Shown here: positions 1 to 6,221 of the stretch, piece by piece
How the letters are laid out: every line of letters starts with the position of its first letter
Numbering within the stretch: position 1 is the stretch's first letter
Source of the DNA: Candidatus Aerophobetes bacterium Ae_b3b
GTDB taxonomy: Bacteria > Aerophobota > Aerophobia > Aerophobales > AE-B3A
Reading direction: 5' to 3'
Assembly (NCBI GenBank): GCA_005223085.1
Contig: NJBP01000078.1
Location: 1 to 6,959 of the forward strand
DNA length: 6,959 bases
Notes under the pieces: model-generated
Told to the model about the DNA's origin: nothing
Databases searched by the model: none
What the model saw: only the letters and a program-made list of their open reading frames with translations
Program-made: the position numbers and the translations under genes

Positions 1-616
1 CCATTACTCCTTCTCCTTCCCACCAGCCCGTGGCAACATCGCAGGAGCTTACACTATTAACGAAGAGTCCGGAGGCTTTTTGTCCCGAGTGTCCAATGAG
101 ATCTATCTGCACCTGTCCTGGCAAGAGTCTATCCCAGTCTCCTGCCTTAACTGGTATTCTCGCACTAGATTAAGAGGATTCCTCTTTCGATGGTACTTTT
201 TGTTTAGGTGAAGAACCTGTCTTTGGTGTTTGAGGGCTCGGTCAATGGTTCGGGGACTGATTCTTTTAAGCTTGTTGGCTACCTCATTAGGAATGATGAG
301 CTCCTCCAGCTGCCTTAAGCGGTCCACCTCAGTCTTTAACAGGGGAGCAAGTCTTTGCCCACAAGGATAATCAAAGATCTCCCAGACTTTTACCAAAGCT
401 ACCTTGACATAGCCATCGTAGACCACCTCCTTTCCTCCTCTTCTTTTGGGTACTAAGGAGATGGAGGAGTTTAGCTTTCTGATGACATACTTCCTATTCT
501 GTCCGGTATTACCGCAGTACTCGTCCAGGATGGAGGATTTTTCCTTTCGGGACTTCGCCATGAAGTATTTCCCTTGGAGAACCTTGAGGTACTCACTTTC
601 TCGCACTCATATCCAT
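1..616 (-). pseudogene. rve-type DDE transposase, N-terminal part, two frameshifts, truncated by window
   Basis: The main open frame (606 to 103) gives a basic N-terminal region with KYVIRKLN, YDGYVKVALVKVWEIFDYPCGQ and ISPRTIDRALKHQ, typical of DNA-binding and linker segments in transposases with an integrase-core (rve) DDE domain. Near 157-160 the frame breaks. Shifting by one base continues as IPVKAGDWDRLLPGQ, then VQIDLIGHSGQ and CDVATGWWEGEGV up to the window edge; the Asp of QIDLIGH fits the first catalytic Asp. A second break lies near 596: the natural start at 616, by analogy with copy 2 (ATG AAT GTG AGT GCG AGA), runs into TGA after seven codons, so only a GTG at 606 opens the long frame. 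Two single-base shifts argue for a decayed gene, though sequencing error cannot be excluded. The closest family is probably IS481/ISNCY-like; the exact IS family is not assigned. Confidence 0.75.
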
Positions 617-672
617 TTTCTCCTTCTCCCCGGTTACTTGTTATTTAACCTAGGGAGCAGTGTATCATACTT

Positions 673-715
673 CGGTTACATTTCATATGGCAGAACCATT
701 CCCTCTTCGGTTACA
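673..715 (-). repeat. Subterminal TGTAACCG repeats, left end of copy 1
   Basis: The motif TGTAACCG occurs twice on the minus strand (715-708 and 680-673). The equivalent pair in copy 2 is at 4163-4170 and 4199-4206, spaced 36 bp, and single copies lie in the right-end repeats at 4543-4550 and 6561-6568. Repetition at both ends of one element suggests transposase binding sites (inference). Confidence 0.6.
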
Positions 716-869
716 TTATAGAGAGCTCTGAAAAACTGGGCTATTTTTGCGGTCTTTCACCTTGACTTGAGTTTTTTTGAAGTGAAGCACCAGGAAACAA
801 CTCCTTTTTCTCTCTGTCTTTTCTTGAATCCTCCTTTGTCTTCTGAGAATTGACGCTCTTTGACTCATT

Positions 870-2310
870 CTATCCTGAAGGTAGAGCTAAGCTCACCGAA
901 TCTTGCTTTATCTCGAGAAGCTTAACCATTCTCTTTAAGTTCATCACCATGAAGGTCATGAATACCTGGATGGCGACTCTGCATCTACCACGATACCGTG
1001 CTCGTGCCATTCTGTGATGCGTTTTGGCTTCTCCAAACTTCGCTTCTATTCTTCTGCGTTTACTTAAGGCCTTCTTCCTTTCCTTGAGGATCAACCTTGA
1101 TATACAGAAGATGGCTCTCGCTCACATACAACGTTGGCCTATTCTCGCTGCAAGGACATCCTTCTTTTTCATCACAGGCCTTACAGAGACGAGAAGAAAA
1201 GTAGTAGACATAAGCGTCTTCATGGTAGGTCTTTCCAATAGAAGAGTATCCTTTCTGGCAGATGAATTCATCGTCCCTCTCACTGTAGATGAAGTCATCG
1301 AGCTTTTTCTTCTTTCTCTTTTCTGGAATGTAGTGCTTCATTCCTCTTTTCTGTATGTTGGTCCGGTTAGCCAAGGAGTCATACAGAGCATCACATGCTA
1401 CAGCTTCTGCGGCGAGGCCCTTTTTATCTTCCTTTTTGAGAAGGCTTTCTAGGTTACTTTTTTCTCCTTCGTTTTCATCTCCAAGGAGGGTTTCACAGCT
1501 GGTGACGATCTCGGATTCGTCCTTGGCTATGTGTGCTTTGTATCCAGCAAATTTGGTTCCAAATCGAGCCTCGGGATCGACGAAGCTCACCAGTTTTCTC
1601 TTCTTCTCTGGATGAGCTACTTTCTCCAAAAGAGCGGTGAGTTCTTCTACTCGGGAAGAGTACTTTCCCTTGACTTTTCCTATGAGTTCTTTGCACAGAT
1701 TGAATTCTTTGGTGAGATCCTCTTTGCTTGGCTTTTGGGAAGAATTCTCCGGAAGGTATCTCTTTAAAGAGTGATCCAATTTCTTTTTCTCTTGCTCTAG
1801 TTGCCCGAGAATTCTCTTTCTTCCTTCTCTTAGAAGATTGACCGTATTGGGAATCGCTACATCCGCTACGATGTGAGTAGCATCAACGGCTTTGAGTTTT
1901 TCCTGAAGAAGTCCCTTTTCTTTGCACTGTTCGATGAATTTATCGAAAATTCTCTCGAATCTTTCTTCTCCGAGCCTTTTTCGAAAGACAACTAAGGAAG
2001 TATCATCAGGAAGAGGATCCTCGATCTTAATTTTGGCAAAGTAGCGAAAGAGAACATTGAACCTTAGTTGTTTCACTACCTCCACATCAGAAAGGTTATA
2101 GTAGAATTCGAGGAAGAGAATCTTAAACATCGCCTCCGGAGGATAGGAGGGTCTTCCCGCTACTTTAGCGTAAAGATCTTTGGTTTCTTCCTCAATGAAG
2201 GAGAAGTCCACCTTCTCCTTGATCTTGAGAAGTTCATGTTCTTTCGGCAGAAAGTACTTTTCAACATAGGAGTCGAAGAAGCTAGCTTGAGGGTCAGTTT
2301 TTCCTAACAT
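870..2310 (-). pseudogene. IS1182/IS5-like DDE transposase, frameshifted near 1094
   Basis: The first frame (2310 to 1060, 416 aa) contains the N-terminal GRPSYPPEAMFKILFLEF region typical of DUF772/IS5-IS1182 transposases. The first catalytic Asp is D143 (AVDATHIVAD) and the second D307 (VACDALYDS). A cysteine cluster C376-x2-C379-x5-C385-x-C387 precedes the usual C-terminal block. The frame then reads into DPQGKEEGLK and TAA. The true continuation, LKERKKALSKRRRIEAKFGEAK, lies in the +1 frame (1094 to 870) and holds the expected catalytic Glu (RIEAKFG, codon about 1046-1044). Joined, the protein would be about 480 aa, a normal length. Without the shift, the product lacks the third catalytic residue. 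Start choice: ATG at 2310 has AAGGAG nine bases upstream and a strong promoter. No known slippery heptamer is visible at the junction, so an indel is more likely than programmed frameshifting. Confidence 0.85.
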
Positions 2311-2395: not shown

Positions 2396-2459
2396 AATTG
2401 AGAAAGAGCAGAGGAAAATTCCATTAATTTGCTAAACTAGCTATGACTTTTTCGTCGTT

Positions 2460-3887
2460 CTATGTCAAGATCCTCTCACTAACATTCATAATACTCTGAT
2501 CTTTCTTTTCAATTTCTTCTAATTCTGCTAGAATATTTAGAGGGGGTAAGACAAGGCTTTCTATCTCGTCTGAGGATTCTTTAATCCTCAAGCTACGAGA
2601 TTGCCATCTTGCCCTCCCTAAATTTTTAGTTCTTTGACTTCTTTTGATAATATTTTTGATAGCTAGCTCTCTATCATAAGGCTCTTTGGTTTTCATCATT
2701 TTCCAGACAATGTCTGAGATTTTTCTGTCTACTCTTTTTAGAGCTTGAGATTTGGAAAGGCCTCGAGATAGACACCTTTGGTAGTAGGCTCTGCTCAGAG
2801 GTTCTCTGACAATAGCAGTAACAGAAATTTGTCTTAGAGTTCTTTTAAGACGACGGTTACATCCTTTTCGGGCTCGATGTTTAGCTCTTCCTCCGGAGCT
2901 TCTCTCTTGAGGAGCAGAACCGTTGTATCTGGCAAACTTATCACGAGTGCTGAATCTGTCTGGATTTAAGGTTTCCCCCAAAAGAACCGAAGCAGTCACT
3001 GTATCTATAGACTTTAGGGAAGTGAGACTTTGATGGGTCTCGGGAAGAAGATCTTTATTTAGTTTTCTTCCTATAACTTTAATACTAGCTTTAACCTGAG
3101 AAATGTTGGCCACGAGTTCTTTTATTATCTCTTTTTTCATTTGCCTTTCTAAGTTCAGCGGCAGATCTTTGATACCTTTGATTGATGAGAGAATAAGTTT
3201 TGCTTTCTCCTGGGCTATCTCTCTGGGATTTCCTCTGCCCAGACGATGAGAACTAGCCTCATACAGAAATCTGGCGAGTTCTTTTGCCTTTGTCTCTTTA
3301 AGAACTTGGGGAATGGAATAGGCGCTAAAAAACTCTAAGGCTATTTTATTCTGCAAACTTGAGAAGAAATTCTTGTAGGCTCCACCCCAGGTTTTAGTGA
3401 GGTAAAAATGAAGTCGATTTACGTTTTGCGTCTTCATTTTGACCAAAATTTCCCTGAATCTTTCTGCTTCTCTGATCGAGGCATAAATCTCGTTATCTTC
3501 CTCTATTTTGGGCAGGCTCTCATAAGAGCGTAGAAGAATTTGAGCAATACACCTGGCGTCTATCTCATCGGATTTGTCGCCACCATAGAAGTCCTTCTGG
3601 CGATTGGTTTTCAAAGGATTCACTTCTCTTATCTCTCTAGGTCGAGAGGTAAGAACGTCTTTAATAGTTTTCCCATAAGCACCTGAGTCTTCAAGACCGT
3701 AGATAACTTTTAAACCGTTCTTTCGAGCTAGCTTCATCACTTTCTCATCAAAGGAGGAAATAGCTTCATAGCTATTTTCAAACTGAGAGTTGAGAAGTTC
3801 TACCTCTGGATAAGCTAAAGCTACTCCCTGGTGAACTCCTTTAGCAGGATCTATTCCTACTGCCATGATATCTGTTGGTATCTTCAT
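2460..3887 (-). CDS. IS110-family transposase/recombinase (DEDD plus serine)
   Basis: This 475-aa protein catalyses RNA-guided excision and insertion of its own element in the known IS110 mechanism. The N-terminal RuvC-like DEDD domain shows D13 (AVGIDPAKG), E66 (YGLEDSGAYG) and D107/D110 (GGDKSDEIDARCIAQ). A coiled, basic middle region (about 130-280) leads into a helix-hairpin-helix-like Transposase_20 domain (LKSIDTVTASVLLGE, 291-305). The serine motif GSAPQERSSGG follows (S331 is the likely nucleophile, S330 the alternative), then the conserved RKGCNRRLKRTLRQIS. The frame is intact with no missing key residue. The ATG at 3887 has a perfect AGGAGG seven bases upstream. The last codons (Leu-Thr, stop) carry the -35 hexamer TTGACA of the circle-junction promoter, so coding and regulatory functions overlap. 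The C-terminal tail after about residue 400 is long and unassigned. Confidence 0.95.
   Translation of the reverse strand: MKIPTDIMAVGIDPAKGVHQGVALAYPEVELLNSQFENSYEAISSFDEKVMKLARKNGLKVIYGLEDSGAYGKTIKDVLTSRPREIREVNPLKTNRQKDFYGGDKSDEIDARCIAQILLRSYESLPKIEEDNEIYASIREAERFREILVKMKTQNVNRLHFYLTKTWGGAYKNFFSSLQNKIALEFFSAYSIPQVLKETKAKELARFLYEASSHRLGRGNPREIAQEKAKLILSSIKGIKDLPLNLERQMKKEIIKELVANISQVKASIKVIGRKLNKDLLPETHQSLTSLKSIDTVTASVLLGETLNPDRFSTRDKFARYNGSAPQERSSGGRAKHRARKGCNRRLKRTLRQISVTAIVREPLSRAYYQRCLSRGLSKSQALKRVDRKISDIVWKMMKTKEPYDRELAIKNIIKRSQRTKNLGRARWQSRSLRIKESSDEIESLVLPPLNILAELEEIEKKDQSIMNVSERILT
2463..2468 (-). promoter_or_regulatory. TTGACA -35 box of the IS110 circle-junction promoter
   Basis: A perfect TTGACA forms the last two sense codons (Leu, Thr) of the recombinase gene and overlaps the right-end sequence. 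It points outward in the inserted element. On circularisation the spacer to TATAAT is eight bases of right end, a two-base core and seven bases of left end, 17 in total. Confidence 0.7.
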
Positions 3888-3915
3888 CGAGCACCTCCTG
3901 AATATGATATTTTTT

Positions 3916-4128
3916 TTCCTTCGAGTCGTTGCCGGGTATAAAGCGTTCGTCGCATCGTTCTATTACCGTTGCTCGAAGGAACTCTGGGATGAGAGGGCAG
4001 ACGAAAAAAAGCCTTATCCTTTGCAGGATGGCACAGAGCTCCGGCCTTATCTCACCCCAAAGCTATTCTATCAAACCAGAGGTGTTAGTGCAAAGATCTG
4101 AATATTGCCGGGGTTATAATATTCTGTC
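3916..4128 (-). ncRNA. Candidate IS110 bridge RNA
   Basis: The leader upstream of the recombinase folds, by eye, into the expected order of elements. The 5' stem-loop has a perfect 7-bp stem GAATATT/AATATTC (4124-4118 with 4106-4100). A target-binding candidate stem CACCTC/GGGGTG (4084-4079 with 4058-4053, one G-U pair) encloses about 20 nt. A small hairpin ATCCT-GCAA-AGGAT (4029-4016) has a GNRA loop. The donor-binding candidate has a perfect 10-bp stem TTCCTTCGAG/CTCGAAGGAA (3981-3972 with 3925-3916) and a 46-nt loop. In that loop, ATAGAACGATG (3963-3953) matches the right end and ATACCCG (3939-3933) is complementary to the left end. The 5' end is estimated from the TATAAT at 4140-4135. The 3' end is not defined and may run toward the ribosome binding site. 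Confidence 0.7.
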
Positions 4129-4134
4129 ATTTAT

Positions 4135-4140
4135 ATTATA
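4135..4140 (-). promoter_or_regulatory. TATAAT -10 box of the IS110 circle-junction promoter
   Basis: A perfect TATAAT lies eight bases inside the left end of the IS110 element. In the inserted form no good -35 hexamer sits 17 bases upstream, because that position falls in flanking DNA. In the excised circle the right end supplies TTGACA at the correct distance. It would drive the bridge RNA and the recombinase. Confidence 0.7.
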
Positions 4141-4261
4141 ACATACCCAGAGGTCTCTAAAATGTAACCGAAGGGTAACCGGCTCTGCCAAATGAAATGT
4201 AACCGAAAACATGATAGACTAGTCCCCAGTCAGATAATAGTTGACCGGGGAGAAGGAGAAA

Positions 4262-4524
4262 ATGAATGTGAGTGCGAGAAACCAGTACCTGAAGGTGCTA
4301 CAGGACAAGTATTTCATGGCAAAGTCCCGAAAAGAGAAATCAGCGATTCTGGAAAGTTGTGCAGTAATACTCATCAGAATCGAAAGTATGTGACGAGGAA
4401 GATAAGATCTTCCATCTGCTTAGTCACGAAAAGAAGAGGAGGAAAGGAGGTAGTCTATGATGGTTATGTGAAAGCTGCTCTGGCTAAGATCTGGGAGATT
4501 TTTGACTATCCCGGGGGGCAATAG
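4262..4524 (+). pseudogene. rve-type DDE transposase, N-terminal fragment, frameshifted and deleted
   Basis: ATG at 4262 follows AAGGAG and opens MNVSARNQYLKVLQDKYF, equivalent to the N-terminus of copy 1, and stops at 4391-4393 after 43 codons. The homologous continuation NTHQNRKYVTRKI and KRRGGKEVVYDGYVKAALAKI is in another frame and ends at TAG 4522-4524. Comparison with copy 1 (GAGTACTGCGGTAAT) shows one base missing around 4354-4365. All catalytic residues are absent because the gene is fused to the element's right end after DYPGGQ. It is non-functional. Confidence 0.8.
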
Positions 4525-4643: not shown

Positions 4644-6221
4644 ATGAAGCGTAAGGCTCTCTCATTGGTTCTGTTCATAACGTTATGTTTCGTTGTTTCT
4701 CCATCAATAGCCGAGGATAAATTTGAACCAAATGATTTAAGGAACTTCATTAAAACGGAAATGAAGAACTGGAACGTGCCGGCTGTCGCCGTTCTGATCG
4801 TCAAAAATGACAAAGTCATTTTTTCAGAGGGTTTCGGCTATCGGGACGTGGAAAAGAAACTGAAAGTAACGTCGAACACCGTTTTCCCTATCGGTTCCGT
4901 TAGCAAGTCTTTTACCGCCCTGGCCTTGGGTATGCTGGCGGACGAGAAAAAGCTGGACTTTGACCAGCCGGTTCGCAACTATCTGCCAACGTTTAGGATG
5001 TATGATGATTACCTGACCGAGCATATCACCCCCCGGGATATGCTTTCGCACCGTTCGGGCCTTCCGAGGCACGACCTCGTGTGGTACAATGCAGGACTAA
5101 CCGGTGAAGAGACGACCAAAAGAATCAGATATCTTCAACTGAGTTATGGATTTCGGGAACGTTTTCAATACAACAATTTGATGTACCAGGCATCCGGATG
5201 TCTCGTGAGAAAGCTTACCGGAAGAACGTGGGAAGAATTTGTGAAGAAAAGGATATTCATGCCGCTGGGAATGAAAAGCAGCAATTTTTCGATCGAAGAA
5301 TTACAGAAATATCCGGATTATGCTCTCCCATACTCGATGAACGTCAATAGCGTGAAGAAATTCCCTGAAAAACTTTCAGATATTGACATTAAACGGATTC
5401 CGTTCTTTGAAATGACCGCCAACGGTCCCGCAGGCTCCATCAACTCCAACCTCAAGGACATGGCCAAGTGGGTCCGATTTCACTTGGCCGAAGGCAAGGT
5501 CGACGGCAAGCAGATTATCGCCAGAGAGACACTGCTTCAGATGCATGCTCCCCAGATGGTCATACCATTGGACTCAGCATTTAAATTTCTCATCTCCGAT
5601 GAAACGCCAACGATCAACTATGGCCTGGGCTGGTTCATTCAACCTTACCGCGGTCATTACATGGTTAATCACGGGGGAAATGTACCCGGTTTTTCAGCCT
5701 TGGTCAGTTTCATACCTAAAGAGAAGATTGGCATCGTTGTGCTTACCAATATGACTGGGACCTCTTTGACCTATACAATAACCTTCAATATTTTCGACCG
5801 GCTCCTGGGCCTCAAGCCGATCGACTGGAGTAAAAGGCTGATGATGCGGGAACGTGAAAACTGGGAAAAAAAGAAGGAGGTTCAGGCAGAGGCCGAAAAG
5901 CAACACCGAAAGAACACCCGCCCCAGTCATCCCCTTGTGGACTATGCGGGTCATTACAGGCACCCGGCCTATGGCCAGATCATTATTGGAAAGGAAGGCG
6001 AATGGCTGAACATCAAATTCAGGGACAGAACCGTGCCAATAGAACATTATCATTATGACACCTTCAGGATTTCCGACGAGGATCCCGAGCATCTCCTCGT
6101 CCATTATGAGGTAAAAAAGGTGACTTTCCTGCTCAATAAAAATGGCGACATCGACAGACTTGCACTCCCTCTTCAGGCGGGTGTGGACGACATTGTGTTC
6201 CAGAAAGTGACCAGGAAATAG
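4644..6221 (+). CDS. Exported serine hydrolase, beta-lactamase-like (S12/PF00144) with C-terminal DUF3471
   Basis: A 525-aa protein with a clear signal peptide: KRK, a hydrophobic core to about residue 19, and SPSIA before ED (likely cleavage after A23), so it acts outside the cytoplasmic membrane. The catalytic domain spans about 28-390: S85-V-S-K88 (FPIGSVSKSF) supplies the acyl-enzyme serine and lysine, Y176-N-N178 is the YxN motif, and H343-G-G345 (VNHGGNVPGF) replaces the KTG box, as in many esterase- or peptidase-like members. A charged linker (about 400-425) joins DUF3471 (about 430-522, with DYAGHYRHPAYG, HYHYDTFR and DIVFQKV). The substrate is unknown; D-amino peptides, esters or lactams are possible, and resistance should not be assumed. 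ATG at 4644 has GGAGGAGG six bases upstream. No partner gene is adjacent. It is flanked by direct repeats and mobile-element debris, yet intact, so it is probably under selection. Confidence 0.93.
   Translation: MKRKALSLVLFITLCFVVSPSIAEDKFEPNDLRNFIKTEMKNWNVPAVAVLIVKNDKVIFSEGFGYRDVEKKLKVTSNTVFPIGSVSKSFTALALGMLADEKKLDFDQPVRNYLPTFRMYDDYLTEHITPRDMLSHRSGLPRHDLVWYNAGLTGEETTKRIRYLQLSYGFRERFQYNNLMYQASGCLVRKLTGRTWEEFVKKRIFMPLGMKSSNFSIEELQKYPDYALPYSMNVNSVKKFPEKLSDIDIKRIPFFEMTANGPAGSINSNLKDMAKWVRFHLAEGKVDGKQIIARETLLQMHAPQMVIPLDSAFKFLISDETPTINYGLGWFIQPYRGHYMVNHGGNVPGFSALVSFIPKEKIGIVVLTNMTGTSLTYTITFNIFDRLLGLKPIDWSKRLMMRERENWEKKKEVQAEAEKQHRKNTRPSHPLVDYAGHYRHPAYGQIIIGKEGEWLNIKFRDRTVPIEHYHYDTFRISDEDPEHLLVHYEVKKVTFLLNKNGDIDRLALPLQAGVDDIVFQKVTRK

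What the first reader, a model, noticed from the sequence alone, without database searches (positions are those of the whole stretch)
3916..3981. IS110 leader stem-loop carries guide-like matches to both ends of its own element
A perfect 10-bp stem (3981-3972 with 3925-3916) closes a 46-nt loop. Read on the minus strand, ATAGAACGATG (3963-3953) agrees with the right end (2463-2453) at 10 of 11 positions, and ATACCCG (3939-3933) pairs with the left end TGGGTAT (4149-4143) at 6 of 7. The two mismatches are at the core and both allow G-U pairing. Order (left-donor guide before right-donor guide) and polarity (one identical to, one complementary to, the top strand) are those of the donor-binding loop described for IS110/IS621 bridge RNAs. 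The matches are short, so chance is limited mainly by the independently defined ends. This appears to be a new bridge RNA with readable donor guides.
Basis: partly seen in the sequence, partly recalled or inferred. Interest (0 to 1): 0.82.

Follow-up and report, generated by a model that had tools for sequence, protein, structure and literature searches.

The report
IS110 bridge RNA aimed at transposon ends
A small jumping gene in an uncultured Aerophobota bacterium carries, just upstream of its recombinase gene, a guide RNA whose two loops spell out its own ends and the site it inserts into, and that site is the end sequence of other jumping genes; it is a clear new example of a recently discovered RNA-guided system rather than a new kind.

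Summary
The 10-bp stem (3981-3972/3925-3916), LDG 3963-3953 and RDG 3939-3933 are present, and such an ordered match to both ends arises in about 1-5 of 10,000 shuffled leaders. A second stem-loop (4062-3982) carries the target guides: LTG GGAGCTCTG (4042-4034) and RTG TTTTTCG (4008-4002). They predict the target (A/G)GAGCTC-TG-AAAAA. This site is found uninterrupted in the same contig at 721-735. GAGANCTCTGAAAAA occurs 52 times in 17 Aerophobota genomes, against 0 for the reversed control. It is the terminal inverted repeat (TIR) of several MITEs with 5-bp target duplications, and it borders a DUF772/DDE (IS1182-like) transposase here and in one relative. Circularisation of the IS110 would build TTGACA-17-TATAAT. 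The recombinase has Pfam IS110 domains, DEDD and the catalytic serine. In six copies the left flank is always GAGANCTCTG. In one genome (G015) both LTG variants match that genome's own two abundant TIR variants. RNA expression was not testable, and donor guides are conserved rather than covarying. Verdict: a genuine IS110-group bridge RNA, a new member of a known kind, targeting transposon/MITE TIRs.

The parts
2460..3887 (-). IS110-group recombinase, 475 aa; DEDD = D13, E66, D107, D110; Tnp serine = S331
   Evidence: Pfam DEDD_Tnp_IS110 E 6.5e-22 and Transposase_20 E 3.9e-17; PDB match to IS621 and ISCro4 with residues aligned
3916..4147 (-). Left-end non-coding region holding the bridge RNA gene (transcript ends inferred)
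   Evidence: Conserved in G015:C83 and G016:C66 over full length and in 4 partial copies; RNA fold of 3900-4062 z = -4.2, 0 of 200 shuffles as stable
3982..4062 (-). Target-binding loop stem-loop (13-bp outer stem 4062-4050/3994-3982, inner hairpin)
4034..4042 (-). LTG GGAGCTCTG: same sense as left target plus core
   Evidence: 8/9 identical, 9/9 with wobble, to the empty site AGAGCTCTG; 8/9 with wobble to its own left flank AGACCTCTG
4002..4008 (-). RTG TTTTTCG: complement of core plus AAAAA
   Evidence: pairs with TG/CG-AAAAA; invariant in 3 leaders
3916..3981 (-). Donor-binding loop: 10-bp stem 3981-3972/3925-3916, 46-nt loop
   Evidence: sequence; conserved with 2 double-sided changes in 3 sequences
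3953..3963 (-). LDG ATAGAACGATG
   Evidence: 10/11 identical to RE 2463-2453, 11/11 with wobble; invariant in three full leaders
3933..3939 (-). RDG ATACCCG
   Evidence: complement of LE TGGGTAT with one G-U; invariant in three full leaders
2453..2463 (-). Right end: LD ATAGAACGA + core CG; overlaps the recombinase stop codon
   Evidence: same RE in G016:C124 and G016:C252 followed by AAAAA
4143..4149 (-). Left end: core TG + RD GGTAT
   Evidence: homology to the empty site stops here; shared by the relative copies
2463..2468 (-). -35 box TTGACA in RE, which meets TATAAT (4140-4135) at 17-bp spacing in the circle
4135..4140 (-). -10 box TATAAT in LE
   Evidence: same spacing in a composite of G016 ends
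4148..4157 (-). Left target half GAGACCTCTG = outer part of the split TIR of the DUF772/DDE element
2448..2452 (-). Right target half AAAAA = inner part of the split TIR
721..735 (+). Uninterrupted target GAGAGCTCTGAAAAA = other TIR of the same DUF772/DDE element
   Evidence: same placement near a related transposase in G002:C165
1060..2310 (-). DUF772/DDE_Tnp_1 (IS1182-like) transposase of the element whose TIR is split

Best explanation
This is the bridge RNA gene of an IS110-group insertion sequence. After excision the RE-LE junction of the circle forms a sigma-70-like promoter (TTGACA-17-TATAAT) that transcribes the left end. The RNA folds into two loops. The donor-binding loop (LDG 3963-3953, RDG 3939-3933) pairs with the element's own junction ATAGAACGA-core-GGTAT. 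The target-binding loop (LTG 4042-4034, RTG 4008-4002) pairs with GAGANCTC-TG-AAAAA, the terminal inverted repeat of DDE elements and MITEs common in Aerophobota. The DEDD/serine recombinase then exchanges strands at the core and inserts the IS110 in one orientation inside the TIR. Shown by sequence: ends, four guides, target, promoter boxes, catalytic residues, homologues. Inferred: transcription, RNP formation, recombination, and immobilisation of the host transposon by splitting its TIR.
For: Recombinase domains and residues. Guides in the order and polarity of IS621. Both guide pairs together in 0 of 20,000 shuffles; donor pair 10, target pair 6. Stable fold z -4.2 and conserved two-loop structure. 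Target predicted by LTG+RTG found uninterrupted at 721-735 and 52 times in the phylum, 0 in the reversed control. Target motif sharply bounded at its outer edge, with inverted pairs and 5-bp duplications of MITEs. G015:C27 shows the LE inside such a MITE TIR. LTG variants AGATTTCTG and GGACCTCTG in G015 match that genome's 25 GAGATTTCTGAAAAA and 15 GAGACCTCTGAAAAA sites. Junction promoter with perfect boxes and 17-bp spacing. From the IS621 structure numbering, the bases after RTG (TC) can pair with donor positions 7-6 and the base after RDG (G) with target position 7 (sequence).
Against: No expression data. Donor guides do not vary in three full leaders, so donor covariation is not shown. G015:C83 has LE GGCTAT against RDG ATACCCG (one mismatch), though that copy is broken by stops. 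LTG position 4 mismatches the actual flank in C7 (G against C). Minimum-free-energy folding of the DBL interior pairs some guide bases internally. Guide lengths were chosen after seeing the data, so shuffle counts are somewhat optimistic.
Confidence: 0.94

Rival explanations
1. The leader stem-loops are a cis-acting regulator of the recombinase mRNA (attenuator or translation control), and the matches to the ends are chance.
For: The stems lie directly upstream of the recombinase start codon and fold stably.
Against: No U-run follows the DBL stem in the transcribed strand. Four guide matches in the right order and polarity do not arise in 20,000 shuffles. The predicted target proves real.
Confidence: 0.03
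2. The leader repeats are remnants of the TIR/MITE sequence itself (a nested copy), not guides.
For: LTG is nearly identical to the TIR, and IS elements in this contig are nested.
Against: RTG is complementary to the TIR and separated from LTG by a conserved hairpin, and LDG/RDG match the IS110 ends, not the TIR. The arrangement is conserved in three genomes.
Confidence: 0.02
3. The bridge RNA is real by descent but this copy is no longer functional.
For: The other copies found are truncated or interrupted by stops. LTG has one mismatch to its own flank. Low copy number in the genome.
Against: The window copy has an intact 475-aa ORF, all catalytic residues, both ends, promoter boxes and all four guides.
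Confidence: 0.3

Closest known systems
IS621 bridge RNA (IS110 group, E. coli; PMC11208160, PMC11208158)
   Same: LE-encoded two-loop RNA, LTG/RTG then LDG/RDG, core dinucleotide in all guides, RE-LE junction promoter, DEDD + Ser recombinase, repetitive target
   Different: Core TG/CG instead of CT; target is a TIR instead of REP; RTG about 7 nt; shorter DBL hairpin; recombinase 475 aa against 326; only remote protein similarity (PDB E 3.7e-7)
IS4321/IS5075 (IS1111 group; Partridge and Hall 2003, cited in PMC11187229)
   Same: Insert at a fixed position inside terminal inverted repeats of other transposons (Tn21 family)
   Different: IS1111 group: RNA gene downstream of the transposase and long sub-terminal inverted repeats; here the RNA is upstream and the STIR is ATA/TAT only
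ISEc21 seekRNA (IS110 type; PMC11187229)
   Same: Upstream non-coding RNA, circle-junction promoter, target inside another IS family
   Different: Target is an IS3 transposase codon region, not a TIR

Membership tests
IS110 group bridge-RNA elements | Recombinase with RuvC-like DEDD domain (PF01548) and Tnp domain with conserved serine (PF02371) | tested here: met
IS110 group bridge-RNA elements | Long non-coding LE upstream of the gene, short RE | tested here: met
   LE about 260 nt, RE overlaps the stop codon
IS110 group bridge-RNA elements | Structured RNA with target-binding and donor-binding loops | tested here: met
   (prediction and conservation, not probing)
IS110 group bridge-RNA elements | LDG/RDG match the element's own ends, including the core | tested here: met
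IS110 group bridge-RNA elements | LTG/RTG match the target, including the core | tested here: met
IS110 group bridge-RNA elements | Guide changes accompany target changes | tested here: inconclusive
   Suggestive: G015 LTGs match G015 TIR variants, but only five LTG/flank pairs
IS110 group bridge-RNA elements | Guide changes accompany donor-end changes | tested here: inconclusive
   Donor guides invariant in three leaders; ends differ by wobble-compatible changes in G016, one mismatch in decayed G015:C83
IS110 group bridge-RNA elements | Promoter formed across RE-LE junction | tested here: met
   TTGACA-17-TATAAT; promoter activity itself not measured
IS110 group bridge-RNA elements | RNA expressed and bound by the recombinase | not testable with these tools
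   no RNA or binding data
IS1111 group | RNA gene downstream of the gene; long (7-17 bp) sub-terminal inverted repeats | tested here: not met
   RNA upstream; only ATA/TAT repeat at the ends

The most novel reading that the evidence does not exclude
This IS110 lineage is a specialised parasite of transposon/MITE terminal repeats. Its target guide evolves in step with the TIR variants of each host genome. Because the LTG gene is itself a half target, the recombinase may also cut its own guide DNA, which would explain copies truncated exactly at the LTG core (G000:C40, G015:C27).
Probability: 0.15. Interest if true: 0.62.

Novelty: new member of a known kind. Interest (0 to 1): 0.47.

Why it matters
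It is a complete bridge RNA with all four guides, promoter, ends and target site readable from sequence in an uncultured phylum, with a core other than CT. It gives an IS110-group counterpart to TIR-targeting IS1111 elements. Within one phylum it suggests natural reprogramming of the target guide to match the terminal repeats of local MITEs, which makes guide-target co-evolution testable.

Tried and rejected
Rfam gave no match at gathering threshold and only chance-level hits near E 1-2. A viral-contig search gave no relatives. The genome-contig scan gave one relative, Candidatus Aerophobetes AUK284. The plasmid collection gave only <30% identical IS110s among the best rows, too distant to align leaders. 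The covariance model R1 found no full-length leader beyond the three used to build it. More distant IS110s in the phylum (about 25-33% identity) were looked at but their ends could not be fixed, so they were not used. GAGANCTCTG being part of the element was considered and rejected, because it occurs joined to AAAAA in 52 uninterrupted sites. A copied TIR as the source of the leader matches was rejected because RTG is complementary and set apart. No literature on insertion sequences in Aerophobetes was found in the held library. No structure prediction was run; domain and residue evidence sufficed.

Full report
OBSERVATION. All coordinates in the finding are right. The stem 3981-3972/3925-3916 is perfect and closes a 46-nt loop. 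ATAGAACGATG (3963-3953) matches RE 2463-2453 at 10 of 11, and ATACCCG (3939-3933) is complementary to LE 4149-4143 at 6 of 7. The RDG alone is weak (6,109 shuffles at >=6/7), so the weight lies on LDG and on the pair.

THE ENDS ARE INDEPENDENTLY SUPPORTED. The contig holds a second sequence, 678-730, that is 83% identical to 4200-4148 (minus) and whose similarity stops exactly at the left core. Six left ends (window; G000:C40; G015:C83; G015:C27; G016:C66; G005:C33) begin G(G/C)TAT after a shared GAGANCTCTG with unrelated sequence further out. Three right ends (window; G016:C124; G016:C252) read TTGACATAGAAC(G/A)AC(G/A) followed by AAAAA(A/G). Joining RE to LE yields TTGACA-17 bp-TATAAT, a consensus promoter that exists only in the circle, as described for IS110 elements.

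Directly upstream lies a second stem-loop, 4062-3982, with a 13-bp outer stem and an inner hairpin. The whole region folds with z = -4.2, and the two-loop structure is kept in the two full-length relatives. It contains LTG GGAGCTCTG (4042-4034) and RTG TTTTTCG (4008-4002). By the IS621 rules these predict the target (A/G)GAGCTC-[T/C]G-AAAAA. The uninterrupted site in the same contig, 721-735, is GAGAGCTCTGAAAAA. The ordered LTG+RTG pair arises in 6 of 20,000 shuffles, and donor and target pairs together in none. The core is TG on the left and CG on the right. LTG and LDG carry TG while RTG and RDG carry CG, so each guide pairs with either core through at most one wobble. The bases after RTG (TC) can pair with donor positions 7 and 6 (A, G), and the base after RDG (G) with target position 7 (C); these are three of the four handshake positions described for IS621 (sequence). 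This is my own reading, with no separate test of chance.

WHAT THE TARGET IS. GAGANCTCTGAAAAA occurs 52 times in 17 Aerophobota genomes, against 0 for the reversed pattern. In 20 distinct contexts the sequence information stops sharply at the first G and is unrelated outside. It occurs as inward-facing pairs giving elements of 91-217 bp; five of these MITEs have 5-bp duplications (gtggt, aagtt, tatat, tcttc, gaata). It also stands about 340 bp beyond the 3' end of a DUF772/DDE transposase gene in the window and in G002:C165. In the window the two sides of the IS110, GAGACCTCTG and AAAAAGTCATAGC, rejoin to a sequence that aligns with the 721 end over 50 bp. So the IS110 sits inside the TIR of that element. 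At G015:C27 an IS110 left end lies in the left TIR of a MITE whose other half is still present.

GUIDE AND TARGET VARIATION. LTG/own flank: window GGAGCTCTG/AGACCTCTG (one true mismatch); G016:C66 GGAGCTCTG/AGAACTCTG (wobbles only); G015:C83 AGATTTCTG/AGATCTCTG (one wobble); G015:C27 GGACCTCTG/AGACCTCTG (one wobble); G000:C40 AGAGCTCT-/AGACCTCTG (truncated, one mismatch). In G015 the TIRs are mostly GAGATTTCTGAAAAA (25) and GAGACCTCTGAAAAA (15), and its two LTGs are AGATTTCTG and GGACCTCTG. In G016 they are mostly GAGAGCTCTGAAAAA (12 of 14), and its LTG is GGAGCTCTG. This is good but small-sample evidence that the guide follows the local TIR. For donors the guides are invariant in three leaders. 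The G016 right ends differ by G-to-A changes that still wobble-pair, and the decayed G015:C83 left end has one mismatch. Donor covariation is therefore not demonstrated.

RECOMBINASE. Pfam IS110 domains; remote match to the solved IS621 and ISCro4 transposases; D13, E66, D107, D110 and S331 align with the IS621 catalytic residues (D13 by the first conserved GID motif, the others by alignment). Close relatives were found only in Aerophobota among the collections searched.

CONCLUSION. The finding is a real IS110-group bridge RNA, with donor and target guides readable. It works like IS621 and meets every testable defining feature of the group except formal covariation, which is inconclusive for want of relatives. 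TIR targeting is known for IS4321/IS5075 of the IS1111 group (cited in PMC11187229), so the biology is a new member with an appealing target rather than a new kind.

Noticed in passing
L002 541-663 (G000:C40) and L019 (G015:C27): Both truncated IS110 left-end copies lose similarity exactly at the LTG core, as if the guide DNA, itself a half target, had been a recombination point; in G015:C27 a TCTGTG microhomology spans the deletion joint.
   Followed up: partly
window 103-720 and 4158-4524: Two diverged copies of a third element (TGTAACCGAA repeats near its end, ORF fragments MRESEYLKVLQGKYF.../QYLKVLQDKYF...) flank the DUF772/DDE element in inverted orientation.
   Followed up: partly
L074, L075, L047, L076, L077-L080, L082: Several MITE families of 91-217 bp in Aerophobota share the TIR GAGANYTCTGAAAAA and some copies show 5-bp target duplications; one of them contains a GTTATTGCGAGCAGG-like dispersed repeat.
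   Followed up: partly
window 870-1094: A separate short minus-strand ORF (74 aa) appears to continue the DUF772/DDE transposase in another frame, which suggests a frameshifted 3' end of that gene.
   Followed up: no
window 4644-6221: Intact 525-aa serine beta-lactamase-like protein (PF00144 + DUF3471) with an N-terminal signal-like segment, next to the nested transposons.
   Followed up: no
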